This document shows positions 2,525 to 63,865 of a stretch of 64,000 bases of DNA, piece by piece (position 1 is the stretch's first letter; each line of letters opens with the position of its first letter). Where the stretch lies: the NCBI GenBank assembly GCA_001897425.1, contig MKSW01000033.1, forward strand, positions 1 to 64,000, in the 5' to 3' direction. The notes under the pieces were generated by a model. That model searched no databases. It had not been told where the DNA came from and saw nothing but the letters and a program-made list of their open reading frames with translations. The position numbers were made by a program, and so were the translations under genes. This DNA is from Actinobacteria bacterium 69-20. GTDB taxonomy: Bacteria; Actinomycetota; Actinomycetes; Mycobacteriales; Nakamurellaceae.

Positions 2525-2851
2525 TCCCGAAACGCGATCGCTGTGAGCGAACACGCCAGCCCGGATCAAAGTCCGTTCTGTCGGGTATGACGCTGTTCTC
2601 GGACCGGGCGCTGCGGGCACAGCCGGGCACGACCGGGCACCACGCAACCCGAGGCGCCGTGATCGCGCGCTGCGCGCGAACATCGTCATCAGCGGTGACC
2701 GCCTTCGGAGCGAACCGGCCCGTCGCGCGCAGCGCGCGAACAGCGTCATGGGCGGTTTTCGCAGCGCGCCGGGCCGACCCCCGTACCGACCGGGCCGATC
2801 GCACGCGGCATGCGCGCCCCACCTGCGCCCCGACGGGTAGCGTCGACGGAC
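2525..2851. repeat. Intergenic region with three GAACNNCGTCAT copies and GC palindromes
   Basis: The rest of the gap between hsp20 and the amidase gene. It carries three exact copies of the dispersed word: 2587-2598 (as ATGACGCTGTTC), 2678-2689 and 2738-2749. The last two are each directly preceded by a 13-bp palindrome, GCGCGCTGCGCGC or GCGCGCAGCGCGC, so a roughly 60-bp segment is repeated in tandem. I see no gene. The amidase promoter should lie at the right end. Confidence 0.8.
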
Positions 2852-4318
2852 ATGACGGAGATCCACGAAATGTCGGCACTCGAGCTCGCGGCCGCCTACC
2901 GCGCCGGGCAGGCAAGCCCGACCGAGGCCGTCGACGCGTTCATGGCGCGGATCGAGGCGCATTCCGACGCGCTCGGCGCGTTCGTCACGGTGACGGCCGA
3001 CGCGGCGCGGACCAAGGCGCAGCGGGCGACCGAGAAGCTGCGCGCCGCACTGGTTTCCGGCGACGCGCTGCCGCCGCTCTTCGGGATCCCTACGGCCGTC
3101 AAGGATCTCAACTCCACGGCGGGCGTGCGCACGACCTTCGGGTCCGTGGTGTTCGCGGACTTCGTGCCGACGGTCTCCGACGAGATCGTGCTGCGCATGG
3201 ACCGCGCGGGGATGATCTCGCTCGGCAAGACGAACACGCCCGAGTTCGGCTCGCCGTGTTACACCGAGCCGGACGTCGCCCCGCCTGCGCGCAGTGCCTA
3301 CGACCTCACCCGGTCGGCCGGCGGTTCGTCGGGCGGTGCGGCCGCTGCCGTGTCCGGCGGGCTGCTGCCGATCGCGCAGGCGTCGGACGGCGGGGGCTCG
3401 ATCCGCATTCCGGCCAGCGTCACCGGCCTGGTCGGGTTCAAGCCGAGCCGCGGCCGGGTGACCCGCGGGCCGGTGTTCGGGGATTTCACTGGGCTCTCCA
3501 CACCTGGCCCGATGGCCCGCACGGTACGCGACTCTGCTGCGCTGCTGGACGTTCTCGCGGGGCCGGCAGCCGGCGAGCCGAGTTGGGCGCCGCCGCTGCC
3601 GCCCGGCGAGACGTACCTCGGCTGGTGCGATCGCCCACCCGGGAGACTGCGGATCGCGCGGTGGTCGGATGCCGCGTTCACCGACGAACCGGTCGATCCG
3701 CAGGTGCGCACCGCCTACGAGCGGGCCGCCGCGCTACTGTCGGAGCTCGGTCACGAGATCGTCGACGTGGCACCGCCTATCGGACCGGACGTGCTGCCGA
3801 CGTTCGAGGTGGTGTGGTCGGTGTCCGCCGCGCTGATGCCCGTGCCGGATGAGGCCGAGCCGCTGCTCCGCCCGCTCACGCGCTGGCTGCGCTCGCGCGG
3901 GAATGCCGTCGCCGCACCGGATTTCGGCACCGCGCTGATCGCGCTGCGTCAGATCGCGGCCCGCGCTATCGTCGAACTCTCCGAATATGATGCCGTTCTC
4001 ACCCCCACGCTGGCGCGATTGCCCGCAGCCGTCGGACAATTGCGCGACGACGAGGACCCAGCCGCCGACTTCGCCGCCCAGGTGCAGTACACGCCGTTCA
4101 CCGCACAGTGGAACGTGACCGGCATGCCAGCGGTGTCGCTGCCGATGGGCTGGTCGGAGCCGACACCGTCCGGGGAGGTGTGGCCGATCGGGGTGATGCT
4201 GGCGGGCCGACCAGCGGCTGACCACCTGCTGTATTCGCTCGCGGCGCAGGTCGAGGAGGCGTGCAGCGATCCCGGCAATCCGTGGCGGCGGCCGGCGGTG
4301 GCGGTAGAGCTGCGCTGA
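2852..4318 (+). CDS. Amidase signature family hydrolase
   Basis: A 488-residue amidase of the Ser-cisSer-Lys class. The catalytic lysine is in TAVKDLNS, the serine-rich signature in RSAGGSSGGAAAAVSGG, and the cis-serine/nucleophile region in ASDGGGSIRIPAS. These enzymes hydrolyse carboxamides in the cytosol; the substrate cannot be told from sequence. The start is ATG at 2852 (MTEIHEMSALELAAAYR). An upstream in-frame start at 2810 would add only arginine- and proline-rich residues that do not look like a domain. The length is normal for the family. A one-mismatch copy of the dispersed word lies inside the gene at 3987. Confidence 0.9.
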   Translation: MTEIHEMSALELAAAYRAGQASPTEAVDAFMARIEAHSDALGAFVTVTADAARTKAQRATEKLRAALVSGDALPPLFGIPTAVKDLNSTAGVRTTFGSVVFADFVPTVSDEIVLRMDRAGMISLGKTNTPEFGSPCYTEPDVAPPARSAYDLTRSAGGSSGGAAAAVSGGLLPIAQASDGGGSIRIPASVTGLVGFKPSRGRVTRGPVFGDFTGLSTPGPMARTVRDSAALLDVLAGPAAGEPSWAPPLPPGETYLGWCDRPPGRLRIARWSDAAFTDEPVDPQVRTAYERAAALLSELGHEIVDVAPPIGPDVLPTFEVVWSVSAALMPVPDEAEPLLRPLTRWLRSRGNAVAAPDFGTALIALRQIAARAIVELSEYDAVLTPTLARLPAAVGQLRDDEDPAADFAAQVQYTPFTAQWNVTGMPAVSLPMGWSEPTPSGEVWPIGVMLAGRPAADHLLYSLAAQVEEACSDPGNPWRRPAVAVELR

Positions 4319-4474
4319 CGTCGCGCGAGACCGCGCGCGGCGCGGAAGCCACGCCTGACACGGAGTCCCTGATTGGGAAGACCCACGCGCCAGCGGTATG
4401 CGCCCAAGGCGCGAGCCGCAGTCCCGATCCCCCGGATCAGTCGCTCGGCAAGCACGCGTCACTACGCTCCAGAT

Positions 4475-5770
4475 ATGCATACGGCGATCGCGGGACCGGT
4501 CGCCGAGTCGATAGCGATCGCGCTGCTCCTGGCGAGCCTGGGGTTCGCCGTGCTCCGCCCGCGCGGTGCCAGCGAGGCCGTCGTCGCGGTGCCCGCCGCG
4601 CTCGCGGTGGTTGCCATCGGGATCGTGCCGTGGGCCGGTGCCTGGGACGTTCTGGCACGCTTCGGACCGACCGTCGTCTTCCTCGCCGGGATCCTGCTTT
4701 TCGGACACCTCGCCGCCGATGCCGGGGTGTTTCGTTACCTCGGCGCCGCGGCCGCGCGGGCCAGCCGCGGCCGCCCGACGCGGCTGCTCACGTTGGTGGT
4801 GCTGCTGGCGGCGCTTGTGACGGCCGTGCTGACTCTCGACGCGACCATCGTGCTCCTCACGCCCGTCATCCTTTCCGCGGCAACGGGTCTCGGCGTCGTA
4901 CCGCGACCGCACCTGTATGCGACCGTTCGGCTCGCGAACAGCGCCTCGGTGCTGTTGCCGATCTCCAACCTCACCAACCTGCTCGCGTTCGCGTCGTCGA
5001 GCCTGACCTTCGGGCGGTTCACCGCGCTGATGGCTCTGCCATGGGTCTTCGTGTGCGTGTGCGAATGGTGCGCGCTGCGCGTCTTCTTCCGTCGGGATCT
5101 CGCCGATGCGGACACCCGCACCCTGTCGCGGGGCGAGACTCGCGACCATGACGTAGTTCTCGCCGCTGCCAGTCCGCCACGCTACGCGCTCACCACCACG
5201 GGGCTCACCGTCGTCGGGTTCGTGGTGATGTCCGCGCTGCACGTATCCCCGGCCTGGGCGGCGTTCGCCGGCTCGGCGGCACTGCTCGCGCCGCAATGGA
5301 AGTCGCGATCCATGTCCCGCCGGACGCGAGCGCGCCGACTGGTCCATGCGGCGAACCTGCCGTTCTGCGCTTTTGTACTCGCGCTGGCGGTGATCGTGGA
5401 AGGCGTTCTGACGCACGGCCTCGCCGGCGCCCTGGGGCGGCTGATCCCGTCCGGCACTGGGCTTCTCGGGCTGCTAGGGATGGCATTCCTCGCGGCGGCG
5501 ATCGCGAATCTGGTGAACAACCTCCCGGCGACACTCGCGATGCTGCCGCTGGTGGCACCCTCCGGACCGCTCACCCTCGCGATGCTGCTCGGCGTGAATA
5601 TCGGACCGAACCTGTCCTATGCCGGTTCTCTCGCCACCATGCTCTGGCGACGGTTGCTGCCGCCTGCACATCGTCCGCGCGCCAAGCGCTTTCACACCCT
5701 GAGCGTCGCCACCGTGCCGCTGATGCTCGCCGGCGCAACGACGCTGCTGTGGGCGGCGCTGCAGCTCTGA
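4475..5770 (+). CDS. ArsB/NhaD-type membrane permease
   Basis: A 431-residue, very hydrophobic protein with about eleven membrane segments. Two inverted-repeat halves are marked by LTLDATIVLLTPVILS and VNNLPATLAMLPL, followed by GVNIGPNLSYAGSLATMLWRR. These match the ion-transporter superfamily that includes ArsB, NhaD and SLC13 carriers. It probably exchanges an anion or sodium ion across the plasma membrane. No arsenate reductase or ArsR gene lies nearby, so an arsenic role is not supported. ATG 4475 gives a natural membrane-protein N-terminus; the in-frame start at 4373 would add a charged, non-membrane stretch. An exact copy of the dispersed word lies at 5148, read as HDVVLA. Confidence 0.82.
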   Translation: MHTAIAGPVAESIAIALLLASLGFAVLRPRGASEAVVAVPAALAVVAIGIVPWAGAWDVLARFGPTVVFLAGILLFGHLAADAGVFRYLGAAAARASRGRPTRLLTLVVLLAALVTAVLTLDATIVLLTPVILSAATGLGVVPRPHLYATVRLANSASVLLPISNLTNLLAFASSSLTFGRFTALMALPWVFVCVCEWCALRVFFRRDLADADTRTLSRGETRDHDVVLAAASPPRYALTTTGLTVVGFVVMSALHVSPAWAAFAGSAALLAPQWKSRSMSRRTRARRLVHAANLPFCAFVLALAVIVEGVLTHGLAGALGRLIPSGTGLLGLLGMAFLAAAIANLVNNLPATLAMLPLVAPSGPLTLAMLLGVNIGPNLSYAGSLATMLWRRLLPPAHRPRAKRFHTLSVATVPLMLAGATTLLWAALQL

Positions 5771-5786
5771 CAGCTACGCGCGAGTA

Positions 5787-6128: not shown

Positions 6129-6409
6129 AGCGATGAGGGTAGCGGCGAAGTCCGCTATGGGAGGTGGCCGCACGAGCTGGGCACGATGCCCCGCCGTATT
6201 CGACGGGCGGGGCCGGGGGCGCTGTCACCCGCGTGGTGCAGATGTCGGTCCATGACCGCAATGAGTCTGCGCCGGCGCAGGGCGGACCTTCCGTCCGCGA
6301 ACGTCGTCATACTCGGCGGTTCGACAACGGGGGTGCCGAAAGACCGGCAACTCACAGCACCTTGACGATATTCGCCCGATAGGCCCGGAATCGACTGCCA
6401 CCGACGCCG

Positions 6410-7064: not shown

Positions 7065-7077
7065 ACGCACAGCGTAT
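7063..7077 (-). promoter_or_regulatory. Candidate VapBC operator palindrome
   Basis: ATACGC-ACA-GCGTAT, a perfect 6-3-6 inverted repeat overlapping the vapB start codon. Its position fits autoregulation by the VapB ribbon-helix-helix protein. Only the palindrome is seen; binding is inferred. Confidence 0.55.
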
Positions 7078-8101: not shown

Positions 8102-8812
8102 CTACTCCGACCGCGCGGCTTGCTCGACTTCCATCCGGTGGATATCGAGCGTGCAGCCGTTGGGGCCGTGGTTGCAGTAGCCGGCCGGATTCTTGTGCAG
8201 GTACTGCTGGTGGTAGTCCTCGGCGTAGTAGAAGGTGCCGGCATCGGTCGCCGAACGGATCTCGGTGGCCGGCTCGCCGCGGCCGTGTTCGGCCAGGACC
8301 GTGGTGAAGGCGTCGCGAGTGGCCAGCGCGACATCCCGTTGCGCATCCGTCGTGTAGAAGATCGCGGACCGGTACTGGGTGCCGATGTCGTTGCCCTGCC
8401 GGTTGGCCGTGGTCGGATCGTGGTTCTCCCAGAACGCCTTGAGTATCGCGGCGAACGTCGTCATCTGCGGGTCGTACACCACGAGAACCGTTTCGGCATG
8501 GCCGGTTCGGCCGGTGCAGACCTCTTCGTAGGTCGGGTTCGGGGTGAACCCGCCCTGGTAGCCGGCGGCGGTCGTGATCACACCGGGCAGTCGCCAGAAG
8601 ATGCGCTCGGTGCCCCAGAAGCAGCCCATGGCCAGCGAGGCGACCTCGGCGCCTTCCGGCCACGGCGGCACGGTCGGCGTGCCCAGGACCGCATGGGTGC
8701 CGGCGTGCGGCATGAGGTCGGGCCGGCCGGGCAGGGCGGTCTCTGCGGTGATCGGCGGTGCGGTATTCGGTGCGGTATAGGCGGCGCTCACGGCGCTGGT
8801 GAACCAGGACAT
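8102..8812 (-). CDS. msrA: Peptide methionine sulfoxide reductase MsrA
   Basis: A 236-residue enzyme that reduces methionine-S-sulfoxide in proteins. The catalytic cysteine is in MGCFWGTERIFW; the fold is supported by AAGYQGGFTPNPTYEEV and TGRTGHAETVLVVYDP. A resolving cysteine pair is near the C-terminus (GYCNHGPNGC). The N-terminus is about 60 residues longer than the core, as in other long MsrA forms. An exact copy of the dispersed word lies inside at 8453 and is read as MTTFAA. The gene is divergent from the aldo-keto reductase. Family and function are confident. Confidence 0.95.
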   Translation of the reverse strand: MSWFTSAVSAAYTAPNTAPPITAETALPGRPDLMPHAGTHAVLGTPTVPPWPEGAEVASLAMGCFWGTERIFWRLPGVITTAAGYQGGFTPNPTYEEVCTGRTGHAETVLVVYDPQMTTFAAILKAFWENHDPTTANRQGNDIGTQYRSAIFYTTDAQRDVALATRDAFTTVLAEHGRGEPATEIRSATDAGTFYYAEDYHQQYLHKNPAGYCNHGPNGCTLDIHRMEVEQAARSE

Positions 8813-8915: not shown

Positions 8916-9890
8916 GTGGCTGATTCGCAGATGACGTACCGCCGCCTCGGCACCTCCGGGCTCACGGTGTCCGCCGTGGGCCTCGGCTGCAACAACCTGG
9001 GCAGGCCGAACAGCGTCACGGCCGACCCGGCCGCCGCGACCGCGGTGGTGCGGGCCGCGCTGGACGCCGGGATCACCTTCTTCGACACGGCCGACGTGTA
9101 CGGCGCGCCGTGCGGACGCTCCGAGGAGTTGCTCGGCGCAGCTCTCGGCGCGGAGCGCGAGAACGTCGTCATTGCAACGAAGTTCGGCATGGACGCGCGC
9201 GGCGCGAACGGCCGCGACTTCGGCGCCCGCGGCTCGCGGCGGTATATCCGGCAGGCGGTGGAGGCGTCGCTGGGGCGCCTGAACACGGACTGGATCGATC
9301 TCTACCAACTGCACGAGCCCGACGCCGAGACGCCCCTCGAGGAGACGCTCGCCGCACTGGACGATCTGGTGCGCGCCGGAAAGGTCCGCTACCTCGGGCA
9401 CTCGAACTTCTCGGGGTGGCAGCTGGCGGACGCGGCCTGGACGGCCCAGTCGGCCTCGCGGACGCCGTTCATCTCGGCCCAGAACCACTACTCGCTACTG
9501 CACCGCGACGCGGAACGCAACCTGATCCCGGCCGCGCATGCGTTCGGGGTCGGTGTGCTGCCGTTCTTCCCGCTGGCCAACGGCCTGCTCACCGGCAAGT
9601 ACACGCGCGACCACGCGCCCGAGGACAGTCGGCTGCAGAAGTTCAAGCCGGCGCTACTCGAGTCCGCGCCGTGGGCGGCGCTGGGGAAGCTGCAGGTGTT
9701 CGCGGACGAGCGCGGCATCGGCATGGTCGACGTCGCGGTCGGCTGGCTGCTGGCCCAGCCGCAGGTCGCGTCGGTGATCGCCGGTGCGACCCGGCCCGAG
9801 CAGGTCGCCGCCAACGCCACGGCGACGTCCTGGCAACCCACCGACGAGGATCTTGCCGCGATCGACGAGATCCTGCCCCCGCCGGCGTGA
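8916..9890 (+). CDS. Aldo-keto reductase
   Basis: A 324-residue NAD(P)H-dependent (beta/alpha)8 oxidoreductase. The catalytic tetrad is visible: Asp and Tyr in FFDTADVYG, Lys in VIATKFGMD, and His in YLGHSNFSGWQ. The start is GTG 8916 (VADSQMTYRRLGTSGLTV). It is expected to reduce aldehydes or ketones in the cytosol; the physiological substrate is unknown. The stop overlaps the GTG start of the MFS gene (GTGA), so the two are probably cotranslated. The word at 9161 is read as ENVVIA. Confidence 0.9.
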   Translation: MADSQMTYRRLGTSGLTVSAVGLGCNNLGRPNSVTADPAAATAVVRAALDAGITFFDTADVYGAPCGRSEELLGAALGAERENVVIATKFGMDARGANGRDFGARGSRRYIRQAVEASLGRLNTDWIDLYQLHEPDAETPLEETLAALDDLVRAGKVRYLGHSNFSGWQLADAAWTAQSASRTPFISAQNHYSLLHRDAERNLIPAAHAFGVGVLPFFPLANGLLTGKYTRDHAPEDSRLQKFKPALLESAPWAALGKLQVFADERGIGMVDVAVGWLLAQPQVASVIAGATRPEQVAANATATSWQPTDEDLAAIDEILPPPA

Positions 9891-11218
9891 CCGGTCAGGC
9901 CTCACGGCGGCACGGCCACACGCCCGAACGACCCGCACCGCCCGAACAGCCCGCACCGCCCGCCACGTCGACCGTTCCCGCCCGTCCGCACCGGGCCGCC
10001 GTCGCCGCGGTGGCCGTCGTGTTCACGCTCAACGGGATCGCCATGGCCGCGGCCGTCTCCCGCATGCCCGACATCAAGGCGCACATCGGCGCGAGCCCCA
10101 CCGAACTGGCCTTTGCCCTCGTGTGCGTGGGCATAGGATCGGTCGTCGCCATGCCGTTCGCCGGACGGCTCGTGCAGCGGTTCGGCACCCGCGCGATCTG
10201 CCTCCTCTTCGCCACCGTCGCCGTCATCGCATGGTCGCTGGTGCCGCTCGCCGGGTCCGTTCCGCAGCTCGCCGTGATCCTGCTCTTCGCGGGAGCCGGG
10301 ATCGGCACCTGGGATGTCGCCATGAACGTGCAGGGCTCGATCGTGGAGCGGCATCGGCATCAGGTGCTCATGCCGCTCTGGCACGGGCTGTTCTCCGCGG
10401 GCGCGGTCGTCGGGGCGCTGATCGGCGCCGCCTCCGCGCGGCTGGGCATCATCATCGCGTGGCAGCTGCCGGTGGTGTCGATCGCGGTCTGGATCGGCGT
10501 GCTCGCGAGTACCGCCACGTTCGTCCCCAACGATCCCGTCGAGCCGAGCCCACTTCCGCGCGAAACCGTCGTTTATGACGATGTTCCCGCCGGCAAGCCG
10601 GCGAAAGACGTTGCCGCCCAACGTGAGCGGGGGGCAGCCAGATCCGGCATCACTCGGGTCGAGATCCTTTTGGGTCTCATCACTCTCGGCACCGCGCTGG
10701 GCGAGGGTGCCGCGAACGACTGGCTCGCTATCGCCCTGGTGGACGGGCGGGGCGCGCCGGCCGCGATAGGCGCGCTCACACTCGCCGGATTCAACGTGAC
10801 GATGGCGATCGGCCGCTTCGCCGGCGGGCCGATCATCGCCCGGATCGGGCGAGTCGCCGCACTGCGCGCCGCGGGGCTCATCGCGGCGTCCGGAGTCCTG
10901 GTGCTGTGCCTGATCCCGGCGACCTGGACCGCGTTCGTCGGCGCGGCCGCGTGGGGGTTGGGGCTGGCTATTGTGTTCCCGTCGGCGATGTCGGCGGCCG
11001 GCGAGGTGCCCGGGCGGCGCGGACGGGCGATCGCGACGGTGTCGACGATCGGGTACGGCGGGTTCCTGTTCGGTGCCCCGCTCATCGGGGTCCTGGCGCA
11101 CCTGATGCCGCTACTGCACGCGCTGTTGGCCGTTGCCGCCGTGGTGATGATCATCGTGATCCTGGCGCCGGCGGCCCGGGAGCGCGGCGGCGTGACGCGA
11201 ACCGTGGCCGAGGCATGA
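9887..11218 (+). CDS. MFS transporter
   Basis: 443 residues with about twelve membrane segments in two six-helix halves, and a charged cytosolic linker around residues 225-255 (YDDVPAGKPAKDVAAQRERG). The GRLVQRFGTRAI segment between helices 2 and 3 is the typical MFS loop. An N-terminal cytosolic tail is rich in Pro and Ala. The start GTG 9887 overlaps the preceding stop. It is a secondary transporter of the plasma membrane, substrate unknown. The next gene, cbiB, overlaps its stop (ATGA), so it may belong to the same transcript as the cobalamin block, but this alone does not make it a corrinoid or cobalt carrier. The dispersed word at 10575 lies in the linker. Confidence 0.85.
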   Translation: MTGQASRRHGHTPERPAPPEQPAPPATSTVPARPHRAAVAAVAVVFTLNGIAMAAAVSRMPDIKAHIGASPTELAFALVCVGIGSVVAMPFAGRLVQRFGTRAICLLFATVAVIAWSLVPLAGSVPQLAVILLFAGAGIGTWDVAMNVQGSIVERHRHQVLMPLWHGLFSAGAVVGALIGAASARLGIIIAWQLPVVSIAVWIGVLASTATFVPNDPVEPSPLPRETVVYDDVPAGKPAKDVAAQRERGAARSGITRVEILLGLITLGTALGEGAANDWLAIALVDGRGAPAAIGALTLAGFNVTMAIGRFAGGPIIARIGRVAALRAAGLIAASGVLVLCLIPATWTAFVGAAAWGLGLAIVFPSAMSAAGEVPGRRGRAIATVSTIGYGGFLFGAPLIGVLAHLMPLLHALLAVAAVVMIIVILAPAARERGGVTRTVAEA

Positions 11219-12291
11219 TGCGGCGCGCAGGCGGCGGGTGGGGTGTGGGCCGGAATTGGGAGCGGGCCTGCGGGCTGCTGCTCGGGGTGGCGCTCGATGC
11301 GCTGCTCGGGGACCCGCGACGCTGGCATCCGGTCGCGGGTTTCGGGCGCGCGGCAGGAACTTTGGAGCGCCGCATGTGGGCGGATTCCCGGATGCGGGGC
11401 GTCGTATTCACCGCCCTGTGCGTGGGGTCTGCGGTCGCGGCGAGCGCCGTGGCGAGCGCCGTGGCGGAGCGCGCGGCCGGCGGGCGCACGGCTCGAAACG
11501 GCACGGCCCGAAACGGCACTGCCCGCGGCCGGATCGCCCGGACAGGCATGACGGTGATCGCGACTTGGGCCGTGCTCGGCGGCAGGAGCCTGACGGCCGA
11601 GGGCCTGGCGCTACATGATCTCCTCGATCGCGGCGATCTGGCTGGCGCGCGGGAACGGGTGACGCATCTGGTTGGCCGTGACCCGTCCGGGCTGGACGCC
11701 GCCGAGATCGCCCGTGCGGGCGTCGAATCCGTGGCCGAGAACTGCTCGGACGCCGTCGTCGCCCCGCTGCTGTGGGGCGCTGTCGCCGGCGTGCCGGGCC
11801 TGATCGGCTACCGCGCGGTGAACACGCTCGACGCGATGGTTGGGCATCGCAGCCCGCGCTACGAGCGGTTCGGGTGGGCCTCGGCACGCCTGGACGACGT
11901 CGCGAACTACCTGCCCGCCCGGGTCTGCGCGGGACTGGTGGCGCTCGTGTCCGGACGGACACAGTCGGTGTGGCGCAGGACATCCCGCTACGCTCGGCAA
12001 CACCCGAGCCCCAACTCCGGCTGGTGCGAGGCGGCGTACGCGGCCGCGCTCGGGGTGCGGCTCGGCGGAACCAACGTCTACGCGGGGCGCACGGAAATGC
12101 GGCCACACCTCGGCACCGGACGCGCCCCGACGGCCGCGGATCTTCCGCGCGCCGCCCGGCTCACGAACAGCGTCATACTCGCTGCCGCGTCCGTGGCCGC
12201 CGGGGCTGCGCTTGCGTTCGGGTCTGCCGCGGGCAGGCTTTGTGGGGCGATGTGCCGGGGCGGCCGCGCCGATCGGGGTGCGCTACAGTAG
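11215..12291 (+). CDS. cbiB: Adenosylcobinamide-phosphate synthase CbiB
   Basis: A 358-residue membrane protein that joins adenosylcobyric acid to (R)-1-amino-2-propanol or its phosphate. The N-terminal DALLGDPRRWHPVAGFGRAA is the family's opening signature. Further conserved blocks are VESVAENCSDAVVAPLLWG, GLIGYRAVNTLDAMVGHRS and FGWASARLDDVANYLPARV. Four to five membrane segments are apparent. ATG 11215 overlaps the previous stop. A cobalamin riboswitch begins directly after its stop, so the genes downstream can be regulated separately from cbiB. The word at 12165 is read as TNSVILA. Confidence 0.95.
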   Translation: MMRRAGGGWGVGRNWERACGLLLGVALDALLGDPRRWHPVAGFGRAAGTLERRMWADSRMRGVVFTALCVGSAVAASAVASAVAERAAGGRTARNGTARNGTARGRIARTGMTVIATWAVLGGRSLTAEGLALHDLLDRGDLAGARERVTHLVGRDPSGLDAAEIARAGVESVAENCSDAVVAPLLWGAVAGVPGLIGYRAVNTLDAMVGHRSPRYERFGWASARLDDVANYLPARVCAGLVALVSGRTQSVWRRTSRYARQHPSPNSGWCEAAYAAALGVRLGGTNVYAGRTEMRPHLGTGRAPTAADLPRAARLTNSVILAAASVAAGAALAFGSAAGRLCGAMCRGGRADRGALQ

Positions 12292-12292
12292 C

Positions 12293-12445: not shown

Positions 12446-12512
12446 GGCGGCGGCGCCCCAGGCGGCCGCGGCGGACGCACTTCGTCCTCCGCGTACCGAT
12501 GGAGGATGACGC

Positions 12513-13622
12513 ATGTCACTACATTCCCGCGCCCTGGCGGCATTAATCGCTGCCGCAACGTCTATGACGCTGTTCGCGGCCTGCGCCGGCACAGCGCCGG
12601 CGGACCAGAGTGCACAGAGTTCGGCACCGGGCTCGACGCCGAGTTCGGCAGACATTTCGACACAGTCGACGTCGCCGAACAATTCCGACAGCGGCACGTC
12701 GGTCGGCGAGAACACCAGCGCCGCAACAGGTTCCGATACCTCGGCGGGAGCGATGTCCGGCTCGTCATCCGCGCCGTCGTCGGCCAACGCCTTCCCGGTG
12801 ACGGTGAAGGCGTCGAACGGCGAGGTGACCGTCACCGCGAAACCGGCTGCCATTGCGTCACTCTCGCCGACCGCGACGGAGATGCTGTATGCGATCGGCG
12901 CCGGTGACCAGGTGAAGGTCGTCGACAGGGACTCCGACTACCCGGCCGGCCTGCCGAACGCCCGCGTCGACGCCTACCAACTGAACATCGAGTCGCTCAC
13001 CAGCTTCCGGCCGGACCTCGTCGTAATGAGCGACGTCGCCCCCGACCAGGAATCGAAGTTCAAGGCTCTGGGTATGACGGTGATCGCGGAGTCCGCGCCC
13101 ACGAACCTCGACGGCACGTATGCGCAGATCATCCAACTGGGCGAGGTCACCGGGCACGCGGAGCAGGCCCGGGCGCTGGTGGCGAAGATGAAGGGCGAGG
13201 TCGCGGCGATCATCGCCGAGGCGCCGAAGCCGGGCGGCACCGCGACGTACTACTACGAACTCGACCAGACCTACTACTCGGTCACCTCGGACACATTCAT
13301 CGGCCACATCCTCGGTCTGGTCGGCCTGAAGAGCATCGCCGACGCGGCGCCCGACGCGACGAAATCCGGTGGTTACCCGCAGCTGGATTCGGAGTTCATC
13401 CTCAAGGCGAATCCCGGTTACGTCTTCCTGGCCGATTCGAAGTGCTGCCAGCAGACACCGGCGACGGTCGGCGCCAGACCGGGGTGGTCCACGCTCGGCG
13501 CGGTCTCCGGCGGACGGGTGTTCCTGCTGGACGACGACATCGCGTCCCGCTGGGGTCCACGCACGGTCGATCTGCTGCGGGCGGTGGCCGACGACATGAA
13601 AGCACATCCGGTGCAGAAATGA
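12513..13622 (+). CDS. btuF: Corrinoid-binding lipoprotein BtuF
   Basis: A 369-residue substrate-binding lipoprotein for a corrinoid ABC importer. A signal peptide ends in a lipobox (LFAAC, Cys near residue 24). A Ser/Thr-rich linker of about 70 residues follows, then a periplasmic-binding fold of the helical-backbone type: ATEMLYAIGAGDQVKVVDRD, later FIGHILGLVGLKS. ATG 12513 has GGAGG upstream. The gene is first after the riboswitch and overlaps btuC by 4 bp. The dispersed word at 12564 encodes part of the signal peptide (SMTLF). Iron-siderophore binding proteins look similar, but riboswitch and neighbours support corrinoids. Confidence 0.9.
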   Translation: MSLHSRALAALIAAATSMTLFAACAGTAPADQSAQSSAPGSTPSSADISTQSTSPNNSDSGTSVGENTSAATGSDTSAGAMSGSSSAPSSANAFPVTVKASNGEVTVTAKPAAIASLSPTATEMLYAIGAGDQVKVVDRDSDYPAGLPNARVDAYQLNIESLTSFRPDLVVMSDVAPDQESKFKALGMTVIAESAPTNLDGTYAQIIQLGEVTGHAEQARALVAKMKGEVAAIIAEAPKPGGTATYYYELDQTYYSVTSDTFIGHILGLVGLKSIADAAPDATKSGGYPQLDSEFILKANPGYVFLADSKCCQQTPATVGARPGWSTLGAVSGGRVFLLDDDIASRWGPRTVDLLRAVADDMKAHPVQK

Positions 13623-15746: not shown

Positions 15747-16273
15747 TCACCTTCGTGCTCGGCGGTGCCCGATCCGGGAAGTCGGCGTTGGCGGAGCGGC
15801 TCGCCGCGGCCAGTGCGCGTGGCGGAAGCCGCGTCGTCGAAAACCGCAGCAGCGTCACGTATGTGGCCACGATGATCGTCGGGGATGACGCCGTTCTCGC
15901 GGAGCGCGTGGCCGCGCACCGGGCCCGTCGACCGCCGGACTGGGCAACTGTCGAAGCCGGAGCGGATCTGCCAGATGTGATTGAAACACTATCGGGCACC
16001 GTGCTTCTCGACTCGCTCGGCCCATGGATCGCCGCCCAGCCGGATTTCGTGGTCGATGCCGACGCGCTGTGCGCGGCGCTCGCCGGACGCTCCGGCGACA
16101 CGATTGTGGTCTCCGACGAGGTGGGGCTCGGGGTGTATCCGGCCACCGATCTCGGCGGCGCGTTCCGGGATGCGCTCGGCACGCTGAACCAGGCCGTGGC
16201 CGCGATCGCCGATCGGGTGCTCCTGACGGTAGCAGGGCGCGTCGTGACCCTCGATCGGCCACCGGACCGCTGA
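15743..16273 (+). CDS. cobU: Adenosylcobinamide kinase/guanylyltransferase CobU
   Basis: A 176-residue bifunctional enzyme that phosphorylates adenosylcobinamide and transfers GMP to make AdoCbi-GDP. The P-loop is [12 protein letters not shown]; the GMP-accepting histidine is in [11 protein letters not shown]; the C-terminal [20 protein letters not shown] is diagnostic. GTG 15743 overlaps the btuD stop. A short insert around residue 30 carries [11 protein letters not shown]. The dispersed word at 15885 is read as DDAVLAE. Confidence 0.94.
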
Positions 16274-16992: not shown

Positions 16993-18329
16993 GCGCCATG
17001 CACGATGCTCACCTGACGAACGGCGTCATCCCCGCTGCCGGGACGCACGGCGGTGACGGCGCGGCGGTCGCGGCCGCGCTGGGAATGGCGCCGGACGAGA
17101 TGCTGGACCTCTCCGCATCGATGAACCCCGTCGCGCCGGATCCCGTGCCGATCCTCGCGCGGCACCTGCGCGCCGGGGTCAGCCGCTACCCGAACCCAGC
17201 CCGAGCCGAGGCGGCGCTCGCCGAGGTGATGGGCGTGGACCGCGAGCGCCTGCTGCTCACCAACGGCGGTGCCGAGGCGATCGCGCTCGTCGCGGCCGAG
17301 ATCGGTGGACACGTGGTCGAGCCGGAGTTCGCGCTGCATCCGCGCGGCGGCGGGCCGCTGTGGCGGTCCAACCCGCACAGCCCGTCAGGGCTGCTGGCCG
17401 GCGGCGCGGATCTAGGCGACGAGCGGGTCGCTGTCTGGGACGAGGCGTTCTACCAACTCGCGACGGGTGAATGGACGCGCGGCGACCGGGACGCCGTGGT
17501 GGTAGGATCACTCACCAAACTCCTTGCCGTGCCGGGACTTCGGGTCGGATACGTGCTCGCGGATCCAGGTCTGATCGCCGCGTGCCGGCGCCGACAGCCG
17601 GGCTGGTCGGTGAACGGATTGGTCTCAGCAGCCTTGCCGGATCTGCTCTCGACCGTGGATCTGGCGGCGTCGGCGCGCGGGGTCCGGGAACTCCGCGCGC
17701 AGCTCACTGACGTGTTGGCCAGGTACGGGATTGCCGCGCGGGCCTCGGACGCGAACTGGGTGCTGGTCGACTCCCCCGGCCTGCGCGAGCGGCTGGCGCC
17801 GCACGGCGTGCTGGTCCGCGACTGCGCGAGCTTCGGGATGACGGGTGTGGCTCGGATCGCGGTGCCGACGGCCGACGGGCTGGCCCGGCTGGACGCCGCA
17901 TTGGTGGCAGCGGAGGTGGCTGCGGACGTGACGGGGCAGATGGCGGGGCCGGTCGACCGCGCGGCCGCAGGCGCCGATCGCGATGCCCATGCCGCCCTAT
18001 TGCAAGATTCCCGCGGGCCGACTCCCGGTCAGCGGAAGGGCCGCGCGCCGACGATGCCAACTCGCTCCGCGTCGATGACGGCTGCGGAGGTGGCGGGGCC
18101 GGTTGACCGCGCGGCCGCAGGCACTGATCGCGATGCCCATGCCGCCCTGTTGCAGGGTTCCCATGGACCAACTCCAGGCGATCCGACGCCCCGCGAACGG
18201 CCAGGCCGCGCACCGGCAACACCGACCCGATCCACGACGACGGGTGGGCACCGACCGAGGCCGCGGTGCGCCGCCGAACCCGATCACCGCGAGACCTCCA
18301 GCCCGCCAACGGAAAGCGAAGCACCATGA
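16989..18329 (+). CDS. cobC: CobC/CobD-like threonine-phosphate decarboxylase with repetitive tail
   Basis: 446 residues. The first 310 form a fold-type I PLP aminotransferase-like enzyme: [10 protein letters not shown] in the cofactor region and the PLP lysine in [20 protein letters not shown]. In cobalamin synthesis this family makes aminopropanol phosphate from threonine phosphate, the partner of CbiB. The last 130 residues are extra, hydrophilic, and consist largely of two 50-residue repeats beginning [10 protein letters not shown]. Normal family members end before this tail. Start GTG 16989 overlaps cobS. The word at 17018 is read TNGVIP near the N-terminus. Confidence 0.87.
17942..18245 (+). 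repeat. Two-unit 150-bp tandem repeat inside the cobC tail
   Basis: GCGGGGCCGGTCGACCGCGC near 17943 recurs as GCGGGGCCGGTTGACCGCGC exactly 150 bases later. Similarity runs through CGATCGCGATGCCCATGCCG and weakens toward the end of each unit. The period is 50 codons, so the frame is kept: unit 1 encodes [20 protein letters not shown] and unit 2 [20 protein letters not shown]. Divergence is mainly silent or conservative in the first half. Confidence 0.9.
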
Positions 18330-22002: not shown

Positions 22003-22140
22003 GTCACGGGCTCCTTCGTGGTTCGACATTGTCGGCGTGCCAGATGTCTTGGCATGTCACGTGTTCGGCTACTTCCGGTCTAGCGCGAGTCCGGTCTTCC
22101 GGGGTGGGCGAGGGCGGTGAACAACGTCATACTCGATCGT

Positions 22141-35519: not shown

Positions 35520-35686
35520 CGGCGCGGTATCACAGCGCTACGCGAACGGCTATGACGGCGCGGCACCGCCACGCGACACAACCCCGTGGGCGCACCGACA
35601 CGCTCTCGTCCCGCGGGCAGCGCATGACGTCACACTGCGGCCCGGAACATCGTCATACCAGCCGGCGGTCGCCGGAATCGGTTGCG

Positions 35687-41755: not shown

Positions 41756-41911
41756 GAGGACCACTTTACTTTTCGGCGCAGGTTTCGCCGATTCCCGCGC
41801 GTGTCCCGTCCTGTTTCGTCAAAAGTGAGTGACCGAGTATGACGCCGTTCGCGGCCTGCCGTCCGCCCGTCCGACGGCCGGGGCGGGCCGGGGAAAGGTG
41901 ATGCGGGCGAT

Positions 41912-52234: not shown

Positions 52235-52858
52235 GTGCCGACCAACAGACTCGAGGCGTTCAGCGATGGTGTGATGGCCGTGATCATCACGATCATGGTG
52301 TTGGACCTGCACGTGCCCGACGGCGACACCTTCGCCGCGTTCGCCAGTACCCTCGGCACCGGGCTCGCCACCTACCTGCTGAGCTTCGTCTACATCGGCA
52401 TCTACTGGAACAACCACCACCATCTCTTCCAGATCGCCGAGCGCACCACCGGCGCCGTGCTGTGGGCGAATCTCCATCTGCTGCTCTGGCTCTCGCTGCT
52501 ACCGCTGACCACCGCGTGGATGGATGCCACCGGCTTCGCCCGGGCGCCGGTGGTCGTCTACGGCATTGACCTGGCCGCGGCCGCCATCGCCTACTGGATC
52601 CTGCAGCAGGCCATCATCCACGGCGAGGGTGCCGGGTCCGGGCTGCGGCAGGCACTCGGCCGGGATGCCAAGGGCAAGGTCTCGCCGGCGATCTACGCGG
52701 CCGCGATACTCGTTGCGCTGCTTGTTGTTCCGCATTGGCGCGCCGGGGTGTGGATATCGGTGGCGTGCTACGTCGCAGCCGCGTTGCTGTGGCTCGTGCC
52801 GGATCGCCGCATCGAGCGTTACCTCGCCGCACGCCGCACCGAATCGGAGATGACGTAG
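52235..52858 (+). CDS. TMEM175-family potassium channel
   Basis: 207 residues with six membrane segments. The first helix has the family signature RLEAFSDGVMAVIITIMVLD (RxxxFSDG). Later helices include LSFVYIGIYWNNHHHLFQI and the C-terminal ISVACYVAAALLWLVPD. Bacterial TMEM175 proteins form tetrameric K+-permeable leak channels. GTG 52235 gives the standard N-terminus. The stop codon is inside a copy of the dispersed word: ATG ACG TAG GTT-type order at 52850-52861. Confidence 0.92.
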   Translation: MPTNRLEAFSDGVMAVIITIMVLDLHVPDGDTFAAFASTLGTGLATYLLSFVYIGIYWNNHHHLFQIAERTTGAVLWANLHLLLWLSLLPLTTAWMDATGFARAPVVVYGIDLAAAAIAYWILQQAIIHGEGAGSGLRQALGRDAKGKVSPAIYAAAILVALLVVPHWRAGVWISVACYVAAALLWLVPDRRIERYLAARRTESEMT

Positions 52859-53014
52859 TTCGCGGCGCTCCCGCGCCGATCACCTATTTCGGGAGGCCCG
52901 CACCCCCCGCAGCTGAGCAGCAAAATGATCGCTCACCTTTGTCCGGAACCCGTCGATAGGTGGCATGAAGAAGTCTCACAGGACAACGCACCTCACGACT
53001 GCAAGGAGGCAGCC

Positions 53015-58637: not shown

Positions 58638-60623
58638 TTGCGTAACGAGTGGAACGACGCCGAGGCTCCCGCCGATGACGATGTTCTCGGGCAATGCGTC
58701 TACGGATCTCGCCTACTCGGCGGGGCGCCCGACCTGGTACTGCACGGCGGCGGCAACACCTCCGTCAAGACGACCACGACGGATGTGCTCGGCACGCGGG
58801 TGGACACGCTCTACGTGAAGGGCAGCGGCTGGGACCTGGCCACGATCGAGGCAGCCGGGTTCGCACCGCTGCGGCTGTCCCGGATGCGCGAGCTGATCGG
58901 CGCGACCGAGCTGCGTGACACGCAGATGATGAACGAGTTCCGTTGCGCCCTACTGGATTCCGGCGCGCCGAACCCGTCCGTGGAGTCCCTGGTGCACGCG
59001 TTCCTGCCGCATGTCGCCGTGCAGCATTCGCACGCCGACCCGATCGTCACGCTGACCAACCTCGCCGACGGGCCGGAGCGGGTGCGCGAGGTGTTCGGCG
59101 ATGCGGTGGTCGTCGTCCCCTACCGGATGCCGGGATTCGACCTGGTGCAGGCCGTGTCCGCCGCGTGGCCGGCGCAGGCCGGAGACGGGACGATCGGGAT
59201 GGTGCTGCTCGGCCACGGCCTGTTCACGTTCGGGGACACCACCAGGGAGGCCTACGCGCGGCATATCGACCTGATCACGCGGGCCGAGGAATACCTCGCC
59301 GCCCACGCCGCTCCGCGCCACGCAGCCGCATCCGGCGCCGCAACGGGCTCAGCCCTGCCCGCCGTAGCCCCGGTCGAGCTGGCCCGCCTGCGCGCGGCGA
59401 TCAGCGCCGCCGCCGGAGCACCGATGATCGTCTCCCGGCACGCCGACGAGCGCGTTGCCGCCTTCGTCTCCCGCGACGATCTCGCCGCGGTCAGCGGGCG
59501 CGGCCCGGCCACCCCGGACCACATCATCCGCACCAAGCTCCGCCCGATGGTCGGCACGGACGTCGACGCATATGTCCGCGACTACCGCGCCTACTTCGAC
59601 CGCAACGCGGGTCGCAGCGCCGATCCCCTCACCATGCTCGATCCGGCCCCGCGGGTGGTGCTCGACCCGGTGCTCGGCCTGCTCACCGTCGGGCAGCGCG
59701 CGAGGGATGCCGCTATCGCCGAGGACATCTACCGGCACACCATGGACATCATCGACCGCGGCGAAGCGCTGGGCGGCTACCGTGCGCTGCCCGAGGCGGA
59801 CCTGTTCGATGTCGAGTACTGGGATCTCGAACAGGCGAAACTGCGGCGCGGAGGGAAACCGCCGGCACTCGCCGGTCAGGTCGCGCTGGTGACGGGGGCG
59901 GCGTCCGGTATCGGCCGGGCCTGCGCGAAGGCGCTGCTCGCCGCCGGCGCGTCGGTGATCGGCCTGGACCTGTCGGCCGAGATTGCCACCACTTTCGGCG
60001 GTCCCGAGTACCTGGGCATCCCGACCGATGTGACGGACGCCGACGCGGTCGATCGCGCGCTCCGCGCCGGGGTGGAGCGGTTCGGCGGGCTGGACATCCT
60101 CGTGGTGTCCGCCGGGATCTTCCCGGAGAGCGAGCCGATCGCGCGGCTGCACATGGACCAGTGGCGGCGCGCCATGGCCGTGAACGTCGATGCGGTGGCG
60201 GCGCTGCTGCAGGCCTCTCATCCCCTGCTGGCGCTGGCGCCCGCCGGCGGGTCGGTCGTGCTGATCGCCTCCAAGAACGTGCCGGCGCCCGGCCCCGGAG
60301 CAGCGTCATACTCGGCATCGAAGGGGGCGCTCACGCAACTCGGCCGAGTGGCCGCGCTGGAATGGGCGGGCGACGGGATCCGGGTCAACATGGTGCACCC
60401 CGACGCCGTGTTCGACACCGCGCTGTGGACGCCCGAGTTGCTCGCGCAGCGCGCCGCCAAGTACGGGCTGAGCGTCGAGGACTACAAGCGCCGAAACCTG
60501 TTGCGCCGTGAGGTATCCAGCGACATCGTCGCGAGCATGACGCTGGCCATGTGCCAGGGCGCGTTCTCCTGCACCACGGGCGCGCAGGTTCCCGTCGACG
60601 GGGGCAACGACCGTGTCGTCTGA
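58638..60623 (+). CDS. Bifunctional class II aldolase/SDR protein, salvage operon gene 3
   Basis: 661 residues. Residues 1-390 are a class II aldolase of the RhaD/FucA superfamily: LVLHGGGNTSVK, YVKGSGWDLATIEAAG, and the zinc-binding HAFLPHVAVQHSHADP, with a later HGLFTFGDTTREAY. Residues 410-661 are an SDR with ALVTGAASGIGRACAKALLA and SYSASKGALTQLGRVAALEW. The start is TTG 58638. The aldolase could cleave a 5-deoxypentulose phosphate to DHAP and an aldehyde, with the SDR acting on the aldehyde or the sugar. The word at 58675 is read DDDVLGQ. Confidence 0.88.
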   Translation: MRNEWNDAEAPADDDVLGQCVYGSRLLGGAPDLVLHGGGNTSVKTTTTDVLGTRVDTLYVKGSGWDLATIEAAGFAPLRLSRMRELIGATELRDTQMMNEFRCALLDSGAPNPSVESLVHAFLPHVAVQHSHADPIVTLTNLADGPERVREVFGDAVVVVPYRMPGFDLVQAVSAAWPAQAGDGTIGMVLLGHGLFTFGDTTREAYARHIDLITRAEEYLAAHAAPRHAAASGAATGSALPAVAPVELARLRAAISAAAGAPMIVSRHADERVAAFVSRDDLAAVSGRGPATPDHIIRTKLRPMVGTDVDAYVRDYRAYFDRNAGRSADPLTMLDPAPRVVLDPVLGLLTVGQRARDAAIAEDIYRHTMDIIDRGEALGGYRALPEADLFDVEYWDLEQAKLRRGGKPPALAGQVALVTGAASGIGRACAKALLAAGASVIGLDLSAEIATTFGGPEYLGIPTDVTDADAVDRALRAGVERFGGLDILVVSAGIFPESEPIARLHMDQWRRAMAVNVDAVAALLQASHPLLALAPAGGSVVLIASKNVPAPGPGAASYSASKGALTQLGRVAALEWAGDGIRVNMVHPDAVFDTALWTPELLAQRAAKYGLSVEDYKRRNLLRREVSSDIVASMTLAMCQGAFSCTTGAQVPVDGGNDRVV

Positions 60624-62789: not shown

Positions 62790-62847
62790 GCCGGCCCGGA
62801 TCCATCAACGATCGCCAACACCCCTGACCACCGAGAAGGAGAACCCC

Positions 62848-63600
62848 ATGGCCCCGCAGTTCGACGACGACTACGTCCTGCCGCTCACGCGCGTGCGGGT
62901 GGGTGACGTGCCGACGCGCGTGCTCGCCGTGGGCGATCCGGCCCGGGTGCGCAAGGCGGCGACGCGGCTGACCGACGTGCGCGAGGCCGGTTCGAATCGC
63001 GAGTACGTCACCGTCATCGGCAGGTACTGCGGCACCGAGGTCGCGATCGTGTCGCACGGGGTCGGCTCGGCCGGCGCGGCCGTGTGCTTCGAGGAGATGT
63101 GCCGCGGGGGCGCGCAGCGGATCATCCGCTCCGGCACCGCGGGCGGACTACAACCCGAGGTTCGGGACGGGTCGGTGGTGGTGGCCACCGGCGCGGTGCG
63201 CGAGGAGGGCATCAGCCGGCAGCTGGTGCCGCTCGCCTTCCCGGCGGTGGCGGATCCCGCCCTGGTGATGTCGCTGCGGGGCCATGCCGCCGACGCGGGC
63301 GTCCCGGTGCACGGCGGGATCGTGCTCACGTCGGACTGCTTCTATCCCGGTCCGGTGCTCGACGTGGATCACCGCCTGTGGCAGCGCGCCGGGTGCGTCG
63401 CCGTGGAGATGGAGCTGGCGGCGCTGTTCGTGACCGCTGCGTTGCACGGGGTGCAGGCCGGCGGCATTCTCGCGATCGACGGAAACCCGTTGGACGAGAA
63501 CGATTCCGACATGTCGAACTACGAGCCGTTCCGCGACGTGGTGGACCGCGCGGTCGATGCCGCCCTCGAGGCGGCGCTCGCCGCGCTCATCGACGCATAG
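62848..63600 (+). CDS. Nucleoside phosphorylase, uridine-phosphorylase/DeoD type
   Basis: 250 residues of the NP-I hexameric family. RVLAVGDPARVRKAATRLTD, VSHGVGSAGAAVCFEEMCRG, IIRSGTAGGLQPEVRDGSVV and VAVEMELAALFVTAALHGV are the conserved phosphate- and sugar-binding blocks. ATG 62848 has AAGGAG. Base specificity cannot be read with confidence; it is the second phosphorylase in one operon, so it may act on a different 5'-modified nucleoside. Last gene of the operon. Confidence 0.88.
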   Translation: MAPQFDDDYVLPLTRVRVGDVPTRVLAVGDPARVRKAATRLTDVREAGSNREYVTVIGRYCGTEVAIVSHGVGSAGAAVCFEEMCRGGAQRIIRSGTAGGLQPEVRDGSVVVATGAVREEGISRQLVPLAFPAVADPALVMSLRGHAADAGVPVHGGIVLTSDCFYPGPVLDVDHRLWQRAGCVAVEMELAALFVTAALHGVQAGGILAIDGNPLDENDSDMSNYEPFRDVVDRAVDAALEAALAALIDA

Positions 63601-63865
63601 CCGGCCGGGCGGCGCCTACCGCTCCGCGCGAACATCGTCATCCTCGTTGTCTGCGGAAATGATCGGACGGGTTTGGTCGCCATACTGAAGCCGACCAGCG
63701 CCGACACAACGGCGCGTCGGAGGGCCGCAATCTCGCGGATCTCACGCCAGCAGATCAGCGGAACCAACCACTCACGGTGACCGCCTCGGCCCAGTACGTC
63801 GAGCGGTGCGTAGTACCCGCGGGGGATCGGCGAGCGGTCACTTTACGTGCAGCGGCGCGTGCTGG
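63601..63865. other. Intergenic stretch at the right end
   Basis: Between the phosphorylase stop and the convergent RelE stop. It contains an exact copy of the dispersed word at 63630-63641 with the full GCGC left flank. No gene or clear terminator is seen. Confidence 0.6.

What the first reader, a model, noticed from the sequence alone, without database searches (positions are those of the whole stretch)
2587..63641. A 12-base bipartite word, GAACNNCGTCAT, is hugely over-represented across the window
I counted 26 exact copies on the two strands (17 as GAACNNCGTCAT, 9 as ATGACGNNGTTC) and about 16 with one mismatch. With ten fixed bases and about 70% GC, chance predicts far less than one. The central NN varies while the flanks stay constant, and intergenic copies share a longer consensus, GCGAACNNCGTCATACTCG. 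Nine or ten of the 26 lie in or touch intergenic DNA, which is only about a tenth of the window. Copies inside genes occur in different genes of unrelated function, with more than one frame used. This resembles highly iterated signals such as DNA uptake sequences, HIP1 or a chromosome-organising protein site, but I know of no such word described for this group.
Basis: seen in the sequence. Interest (0 to 1): 0.88.

Follow-up and report, generated by a model that had tools for sequence, protein, structure and literature searches.

The report
Iterated DNA word in two Nakamurella
A roughly 20-letter DNA word is written about 900 times across the chromosome of an environmental actinobacterium, is held nearly constant in its sister species and is missing from the other relatives examined; it is most likely a self-recognition tag for taking up DNA, a kind of signal best known from two groups of Gram-negative bacteria.

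Summary
GAACNNCGTCAT occurs 27 times in the window and 898 times in the 4.48 Mb draft genome (451/447 by strand; reversed control word 4). In the genus (Nakamurella by a 95% protein match) only one other of 17 genomes carries it in excess, the ~90% identical sister G014 (798); the other 15 have 11-54. Besides these two, no genome in an order sample (397) or phylum sample (396) exceeds 22 for the extended word.

The full consensus is CGCGAACAKCGTCATACYCG. Its fixed bases are conserved between the sisters, third codon positions included, while the NN drifts. Copies lie in genes and, three times more densely, between genes, with no clear tie to promoters or gene direction. Unexpectedly, same-orientation copies avoid each other within about 1 kb while inverted copies do not (replicated more weakly).

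Both word-bearing species have a type IV pilus operon and ComEC. Best reading: a DNA-uptake-type self-recognition word, the first I know of in Actinomycetota. A RecBCD Chi site, Dnd phosphorothioation, REP elements and gene regulation are excluded or disfavoured. The reader protein is unidentified.

The parts
2587..2598 (-). word copy, divergent intergenic (cluster of three)
2678..2689 (+). word copy, divergent intergenic (cluster of three)
2738..2749 (+). word copy, divergent intergenic (cluster of three)
5148..5159 (-). word copy, in a called gene
6299..6310 (+). word copy, intergenic; followed by ACTCG as in the full consensus
8453..8464 (+). word copy, in a called gene; fixed bases conserved in G014
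9161..9172 (+). word copy, in a called gene; conserved in G014
10575..10586 (-). word copy, in a called gene; conserved in G014
12165..12176 (+). word copy, in a called gene; conserved in G014 although NN changed
12564..12575 (-). word copy at the start of a called gene; conserved in G014
15885..15896 (-). word copy, in a called gene; conserved in G014 although NN changed
17018..17029 (+). word copy, in a called gene; conserved in G014 although both NN letters changed
22119..22130 (+). word copy, intergenic; conserved in G014 although NN changed
23530..23541 (-). word copy, in a called gene; conserved in G014
23901..23912 (+). word copy, in a called gene; conserved in G014 although NN changed
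30910..30921 (+). word copy, in a called gene
34048..34059 (+). word copy, in a called gene
35645..35656 (+). word copy, convergent intergenic
41839..41850 (-). word copy, intergenic; followed by ACTCG
42106..42117 (+). word copy, in a called gene
43563..43574 (-). word copy, in a called gene
46243..46254 (+). word copy, in a called gene
47327..47338 (+). word copy, in a called gene
52850..52861 (-). word copy overlapping a gene's stop codon
57645..57656 (+). word copy, intergenic; followed by ACTCG
58675..58686 (-). word copy, in a called gene
63630..63641 (+). word copy beyond the last called gene of the window

Best explanation
The word (full form CGCGAACAKCGTCATACYCG; rigid part CGTCAT plus the trailing CG, tolerant part GAAC) is a genome-wide self-recognition tag of the DNA-uptake-sequence type. 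A surface receptor, most simply part of the type IV pilus encoded by both word-bearing species, prefers double-stranded DNA carrying the word; the pilus retracts, ComEA/ComEC import one strand, and it recombines into the chromosome. Because word-bearing alleles are taken up and recombined more often than mutated ones, the word accumulates wherever the sequence tolerates it and is kept constant. SHOWN here: the iteration, its restriction to two sister species among the genomes examined, conservation at the DNA level, the placement pattern, the presence of pilus and com genes. NOT EXPLAINED by the simple model: same-orientation copies exclude each other within about 1 kb whereas inverted copies do not; if uptake is the function, it must be orientation-sensitive.
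For: 898 and 798 copies in the two sisters, 11-54 in the 15 other genomes of the genus; order sample 397 and phylum sample 396: none above 22 besides these two. Conservation: 34 of 42 G000-anchored copies intact in G014 over 121 kb aligned; fixed columns differ in 1-7% (8 of 10 in 1-2%), the second N in 28%, flanks in about 11% (my average of the printed columns); third codon positions inside the word differ in 3 of 96 against 118 of 783 in flanks, p=4.6e-4; 33 of 41 copies conserved against 794 of 1657 random words of equal GC. Placement: 231 sites in 1.036 Mb, 0.163/kb coding, 0.517/kb intergenic; 0.71 per 10 kb in the 7 bins below 66% GC against 2.0-2.6 in the classes of the other 93; similar density in tandem, divergent and convergent gaps and little relation to gene direction; no strand bias (C3 41/36, C1 19/20). 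Rigid and tolerant parts recall the essential CTG core of DUS (PMC3630211, passages). Type IV pilin motif in 5 of 17 genomes including both word-bearers; in G000 an operon with PilM, two T2SSE ATPases and two N_methyl pilins by Pfam and further parts by position, same operon in G014; ComEC in 17 of 17; in G000 a ComEA-like HHH protein beside it.
Against: Three genomes of the genus with type IV pilins (G004, G011, G013) lack this word, and 200 kb of each shows no other dispersed genic word of this kind, so pili do not predict it. The four pilin-like proteins of G000 have acidic soluble parts (pI 5.0-5.7, crude cut), those of G014 pI 4.6-6.3, while the minor pilins of word-less G004 and G013 are more basic (8.8, 7.8); DNA-binding pilins such as ComP and FimT are described as electropositive (PMC12616744, passages). 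Same-orientation exclusion without inverted exclusion is not predicted: uptake in H. influenzae did not depend on orientation (PMC1939737, passages). No uptake experiment exists; no receptor identified; the pilus-word association rests on one origin.
Confidence: 0.5

Rival explanations
1. A polar recombination or DNA-processing site, working like Chi but for an enzyme other than RecBCD: each orientation serves enzymes travelling in one direction, so a second copy in the same orientation within about 1 kb is redundant while an inverted one is not.
For: Same-orientation pairs under 1 kb: 9 against 28.8 +- 5.4 expected, inverted 35 against 28.8 (231 sites of G000); in G014 4 against 15.5, inverted 14 against 15.0 (99 sites); neighbours under 3 kb inverted 80 against 57.7 +- 5.2, 0 of 5000 permutations; replicated in fresh 400 kb, 13 same against 30 inverted, p=0.014. 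Two of the three genomes lacking RecC carry the word; what remains there is a tandem pair of large PDDEXK proteins that I take for AdnAB (name recalled). The strict word occurs about once per 5 kb.
Against: RecC was not found in either word-bearing genome (drafts, 98% and 96% complete), so it is no RecBCD Chi. The tandem pair is seen in 16 of 17 genomes, and in G005 as two halves on two contigs, but the word in 2. G003 also lacks RecC and has no word excess. Known Chi sites are short and contiguous and mostly strand-biased (recalled); this is a 20-bp bipartite word without strand bias.
Confidence: 0.22
2. Binding site of an abundant chromosome-organising or nucleoid protein peculiar to these two species.
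For: Genome-wide, no clear tie to transcription, conserved footprint of about 20 bp.
Against: No candidate protein found; spacing of all copies is near random (CV 1.14) rather than regular; same-orientation exclusion is odd for a scaffold; so narrow a phylogenetic range is unusual. MatP/ParB-type readers not tested.
Confidence: 0.15
3. Recognition site linked to base or backbone modification (HIP1-like methylation, GAAC phosphorothioation).
For: HIP1 in cyanobacteria is a precedent for extreme iteration tied to methyltransferases (PMC4390886, start of abstract in search listing only). GAAC is a known phosphorothioate motif (recalled).
Against: The word is not palindromic and is longer than usual methylase sites (recalled); DndC was not found in either word-bearer. 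Methyltransferases were not surveyed.
Confidence: 0.06
4. Transcriptional regulatory site, terminator or mobile/REP-type repeat.
For: Three-fold intergenic enrichment; a few close inverted pairs could form hairpins.
Against: 142 of 231 copies are inside genes; densities similar in divergent, tandem and convergent gaps; little orientation relation to genes; of the 15 sites present in one sister only, 12 differ by base substitutions alone and 3 contain gaps, so copies do not come and go as insertions. The REP-like element of this genome is a different sequence.
Confidence: 0.03

Closest known systems
DNA uptake sequence (DUS) of Neisseriaceae
   Same: Hundreds to thousands of copies, clade-specific form, genic and intergenic, rigid short core with tolerant rest, type IV pilus and ComEC present.
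   Different: DUS are contiguous 10-12-mers with known receptor ComP; this is a bipartite 20-bp word in an actinobacterium, without known receptor, with same-orientation exclusion out to about 1 kb.
Uptake signal sequence (USS) of Pasteurellaceae
   Same: Similar copy number; both strands; more copies outside genes than expected; one strand form commoner in reading frames (here 79 antisense, 63 sense) and copies concentrated at a gene end (50 of 142 in the first fifth), compare PMC2346458.
   Different: Different sequence, phylum and base composition; USS uptake reported not to depend on orientation (PMC1939737).
Chi recombination hotspots
   Same: Similar density to E. coli Chi (recalled); polar behaviour is suggested by the spacing rule.
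   Different: No RecC found; no strand bias; longer, gapped word; only two species.
HIP1 (GCGATCGC) of cyanobacteria
   Same: Extreme iteration in a limited clade.
   Different: HIP1 is a short palindrome linked to methyltransferases; this word is asymmetric.
REP/BIME repeats
   Same: Dispersed short repeats; the same genomes also have a REP-like element.
   Different: REPs are intergenic hairpins (recalled); the word is mostly genic and not self-complementary.

Membership tests
DNA uptake sequence (DUS/USS) | Copy number far beyond composition expectation, genome-wide | tested here: met
   898 against 4 for the reversed word; other genomes of the genus 11-54
DNA uptake sequence (DUS/USS) | Clade-specific form that follows phylogeny | tested here: met
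   Only G000 and its 89-92% identical sister G014 among 17 genomes of the genus and in order/phylum samples
DNA uptake sequence (DUS/USS) | In genes and between genes, intergenic excess, no strand bias, not tied to promoters | tested here: met
   the window alone is 17 to 10 by strand
DNA uptake sequence (DUS/USS) | Frequent inverted pairs forming terminator hairpins | tested here: inconclusive
   Inverted pairs prevail at short range, but only three pairs in 1.04 Mb of G000 and one in 356 kb of G014 lie within 50 bp
DNA uptake sequence (DUS/USS) | Type IV filament and ComEC uptake machinery | tested here: met
   presence only, function untested
DNA uptake sequence (DUS/USS) | Cognate DNA-binding minor pilin or other receptor | tested here: inconclusive
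   Pilin-like proteins acidic; AlphaFold model of the 215-aa pilin poor, pLDDT 53; no receptor identified
DNA uptake sequence (DUS/USS) | Uptake independent of word orientation | not testable with these tools
   Spacing rule hints at orientation dependence
DNA uptake sequence (DUS/USS) | DNA with the word is taken up preferentially | not testable with these tools
   Needs a transformation assay
DNA uptake sequence (DUS/USS) | Over-representation in genome-maintenance genes | not tested
   No annotation of enough genes was possible
Chi site of RecBCD | RecBCD present | tested here: not met
   RecC PF04257 not found in G000 and G014, found in 14 of 17
Chi site of RecBCD | Strand bias along the replichore | tested here: not met
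   41/36 and 19/20 on two contigs; 25 of 53 and 15 of 30 on + in two more stretches
FtsK-orienting (KOPS) type | Strong strand bias towards the terminus | tested here: not met
   Same counts
HIP1 | Palindromic octamer GCGATCGC | tested here: not met
   Consensus asymmetric
Dnd phosphorothioation at GAAC/GTTC | DndC present | tested here: not met
   1 of 17 genomes (G011), neither word-bearer
REP element | Intergenic hairpin repeat | tested here: not met
   142 of 231 copies in genes, word not self-complementary
MatP/matS or ParB/parS type | Cognate DNA-binding protein | not tested

The most novel reading that the evidence does not exclude
A new kind of genome-wide, orientation-aware self-marking word in Actinomycetota: each strand carries its own set of copies that keep about 1 kb apart, read by an undiscovered polar reader (an orientation-sensitive uptake receptor or a non-RecBCD recombination machine), that arose and filled the genome in the ancestor of two sister species, in a lineage that has also lost RecBCD.
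Probability: 0.3. Interest if true: 0.92.

Novelty: new variant of a known kind. Interest (0 to 1): 0.82.

Why it matters
Species-specific uptake words are known to me only from Neisseriaceae and Pasteurellaceae. An independent case in a high-GC actinobacterium, present in one pair of sister species and absent in 15 other genomes of the genus, would let the origin and spread of such words be followed by comparing close relatives, with an uptake assay as a direct test. The same-orientation exclusion is a quantitative clue to mechanism that can be checked in existing Neisseria and Haemophilus genomes, which I could not reach.

Tried and rejected
Dialects: the 25 best de novo gapped 5+5 words printed for G000 are all parts of this motif (top z=60 in 464 kb); it also tops 200 kb of G000 (z=23) and 195 kb of G014 (z=32), while 200 kb each of G004, G013, G011 and 100 kb each of G005, G001 gave tops of z=8.8-14.5. 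The 14.5 is a part of TGGATCAACTT in G013, shown to belong to an intergenic inverted-pair repeat of G011 and G013 (94 and 106 copies of TGGATCAACTTC), not a dialect.

RecBCD Chi: rejected, no RecC found. Phosphorothioation: rejected, no DndC found. Promoter/terminator function: disfavoured. General avoidance of direct repeats as cause of the orientation rule: rejected, since exact 12-mer direct repeats 18-1000 bp apart (words of at most 8 GC, this motif left out) are in excess (813 direct, 229 inverted) and other abundant 4-N2-6 words show 1107 same against 745 inverted under 1 kb.

Against my reading of the orientation rule: the replication gave a weaker deficit (4 same against about 9.7 expected, 17 of 400 simulations as low); counted over all pairs it fades beyond about 1 kb; the variant words alone do not show it (G000, neighbours under 2 kb: 7 same, 4 inverted); the G014 counts share orthologous sites with G000 and are not independent. 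In G014 convergent gaps the orientation was 1 against 7 (small numbers).

Minor-pilin structure too poor to search. Gene-function bias and lineage-specific reader genes could not be tested with the sequence available. Looking for an autoregulated binder beside clusters of copies gave nothing clear: the window's triple cluster sits between an HSP20-family gene and an amidase-family gene.
Full report
WHAT WAS CHECKED. The window holds 27 exact GAACNNCGTCAT (17 on +, 10 on -) and 49 at one mismatch or fewer, against 4.37 expected from shuffles. The window is part of contig C33 of a 4,475,503-base draft genome in which the word occurs 451 + 447 times, its reversed control 0 + 4.

EXTENT OF THE WORD. 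From 124 copies in 464 kb the informative columns run from -3 to +16: CG.GAAC RK CGTCAT MYY CG, consensus CGCGAACAKCGTCATACYCG. Substitution counts on 1.13 Mb of G000 and G014 against 0.40 Mb of other genomes of the genus show that the CGTCAT half tolerates little, CGTCAC at most, whereas GATC, GGAC, GAGC and GAAT in the first half are clearly enriched and GCAC and GAAG mildly. In a de novo search for gapped words the 25 best words printed for G000 are all parts of this motif, and it is again at the top in G014.

PHYLOGENETIC RANGE. Of 17 genomes of the genus (which is the whole family here), only G000 (898) and G014 (798) carry it in excess; the other 15 have 11-54 copies. With the trailing CG added, 397 genomes of the order give 766 and 669 for these two and at most 22 elsewhere; 396 genomes of the phylum, partly the same ones, give no further case. 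These are samples of larger groups. G014 is 89-92% identical to G000 in the two blocks covering most of the 20 kb compared; the others are 70-77% in their best blocks. So the word filled the genome in the lineage of these two sisters or was lost elsewhere; the former is simpler.

SELECTION ON THE DNA. 792 kb of G000 and 336 kb of G014 were compared, which gave 121 kb of alignment (blocks under 800 bp or at most 80% identical dropped, blocks overlapping a longer one by more than a fifth dropped, sites within about 40-50 letters of a block end skipped). 34 of 42 G000 copies and 34 of 41 G014 copies are intact in the other genome. Columns 6-11 differ in 1-2%, columns 0-3 in 2-7%, the first N in 11%, the second N in 28%, the surroundings in about 11%. 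Inside genes, third codon positions within the fixed columns differ in 3 of 96 cases, in flanks in 118 of 783 (p = 4.6e-4); genic copies conserved 21 of 26, non-genic 12 of 15, random words of equal GC 794 of 1657. Four of the 15 unshared copies differ by a coupled change between GAAC-NN and GGAC-AG, itself an enriched variant.

PLACEMENT. In 1.036 Mb (231 copies; genes called by a home-made finder) density is 0.163/kb in genes (142 copies) and 0.517/kb between genes (85); 4 copies sit on gene edges. Ten-kb bins below 66% GC (7 of 100) hold 0.71 copies on average, the other classes 2.0-2.6 (rank correlation 0.20, p = 0.04), as expected if recently acquired DNA lacks the word. Tandem, divergent and convergent gaps have similar densities (42 in 79.2 kb, 25 in 40.3 kb, 17 in 25.5 kb) and orientation shows little relation to neighbouring genes in G000. 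In genes five of six frames are used. 50 of 142 genic copies lie in the first fifth of the gene; part of this may be wrong start codons. There is no strand bias on long contigs, although the window itself is 17 to 10.

A SPACING RULE. Neighbouring copies less than 3 kb apart are inverted 80 times and parallel 35 times in G000 (57.7 +- 5.2 inverted expected by permutation, 0 of 5000 as high); beyond 3 kb 50 parallel, 51 inverted; in G014 37 inverted and 19 parallel under 3 kb. Counting all pairs under 1 kb against 300 simulations that respect genic and intergenic densities: parallel 9 (expected 28.8 +- 5.4), inverted 35 (28.8); in G014 parallel 4 (15.5), inverted 14 (15.0). I then took 400 kb of fresh G000 sequence with the prediction noted first: neighbours under 3 kb 13 parallel, 30 inverted (p = 0.014); under 1 kb parallel 4 (about 9.7 expected; 17 of 400 simulations as low), inverted 15 (about 10). 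So the rule replicates, more weakly and with a slight excess of inverted pairs. The variant words taken alone do not show it. It is not a general avoidance of direct repeats: direct 12-mer repeats under 1 kb are in excess, and other abundant words are more often parallel than inverted at that range. Parallel copies thus behave as mutually redundant and inverted ones as independent, which points to a polar reader.

MACHINERY. ComEC is found in all 17 genomes. The type IV pilin N-terminal motif is found in 5 of 17: G000, G014, G004, G011, G013. In G000 it lies in an operon on C17 (about 68.7-82.1 kb) with a PilM-type gene, two T2SSE ATPases, a 215-aa pilin and a 614-aa pilin with Ig-like domains (Pfam), and genes that I read as PilC, PilN, PilO, major pilin and a 528-aa PilX-like protein from position and sequence. 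G014 has the same operon, G004 and G013 a related one, G011 a more distant one. In G000 a ComEA-like protein with HHH and SLBB domains stands before ComEC. RecC is found in 14 of 17 and not in G000, G014 and G003. A tandem pair of large PDDEXK proteins, AdnAB by my reading, is seen in 16 of 17, in G005 as two halves on two contigs. DndC is found in G011 only.

HOW IT PROBABLY WORKS. The pattern of copy number, placement, clade specificity, core structure and machinery is that of uptake words. [quoted passage not shown] influenzae (PMC1939737, passages); copies concentrate at gene ends in Pasteurellaceae and one strand form prevails in reading frames (PMC2346458, first of three parts); Neisseriaceae have eight dialects congruent with phylogeny, a rigid CTG core and frequent inverted pairs (PMC3630211, passages). 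In Actinomycetota natural transformation is known from Micrococcus luteus, where it needs Flp pili; the phrases searched for uptake sequences do not occur in that paper (PMC4322843, passages). A Chi-like role for another enzyme explains the spacing rule best but lacks an enzyme and a strand bias (0.22).

WHAT IS IN PRINT. Nakamurella with DNA uptake sequence: 0 papers. Uptake sequence with Actinobacteria, overrepresented and competence: 0. Two of three of DNA uptake sequence / uptake signal sequence / Actinobacteria: 46 papers, 20 listed; [quoted passage not shown] Overrepresented or highly iterated words: 140 papers, 10 listed. Nakamurella with type IV pilus: 1, unrelated by title. None of what I saw describes this word. 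The library holds open-licence PMC papers only.

Noticed in passing
window 20296-20361: A REP-like hairpin repeat (20-bp stem, MFE -44.4 kcal/mol, z -5.8) in the gap of a convergent gene pair, found at 17 places in 1.436 Mb of G000 and 21 in 356 kb of G014 (most of those G014 contigs were picked because they hold it), 0 in 800 kb of other genomes of the genus.
   Followed up: partly
G011 and G013, e.g. L270 about 18180-18275, L060 about 1980-2055: A different dispersed repeat: TGGATCAACTTC in inverted pairs about 62 bp apart with 19-bp satellites, 94 and 106 copies, 0-2 in the other 15 genomes.
   Followed up: partly
genus-wide: RecC (RecBCD) is not found in three of 17 genomes, including both word-bearers.
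   Followed up: partly
window 12308-12424: Cobalamin riboswitch upstream of the gene at 12564-13622 (Rfam RF00174, 40.1 bits); a word copy overlaps the start of that gene.
   Followed up: no
window 2587-2749: Three word copies in one divergent gap between an HSP20-family gene and an amidase-family gene, the only triple cluster in the 1.04 Mb searched for clusters.
   Followed up: partly
L050 (G005) 12168-14769: Three GTTCCACGTGGAAC palindromes within 2.6 kb, resembling a parS cluster (from memory).
   Followed up: no
G011:C1:730531-731832: A DndC-type phosphorothioation gene in one genome of the genus only.
   Followed up: no
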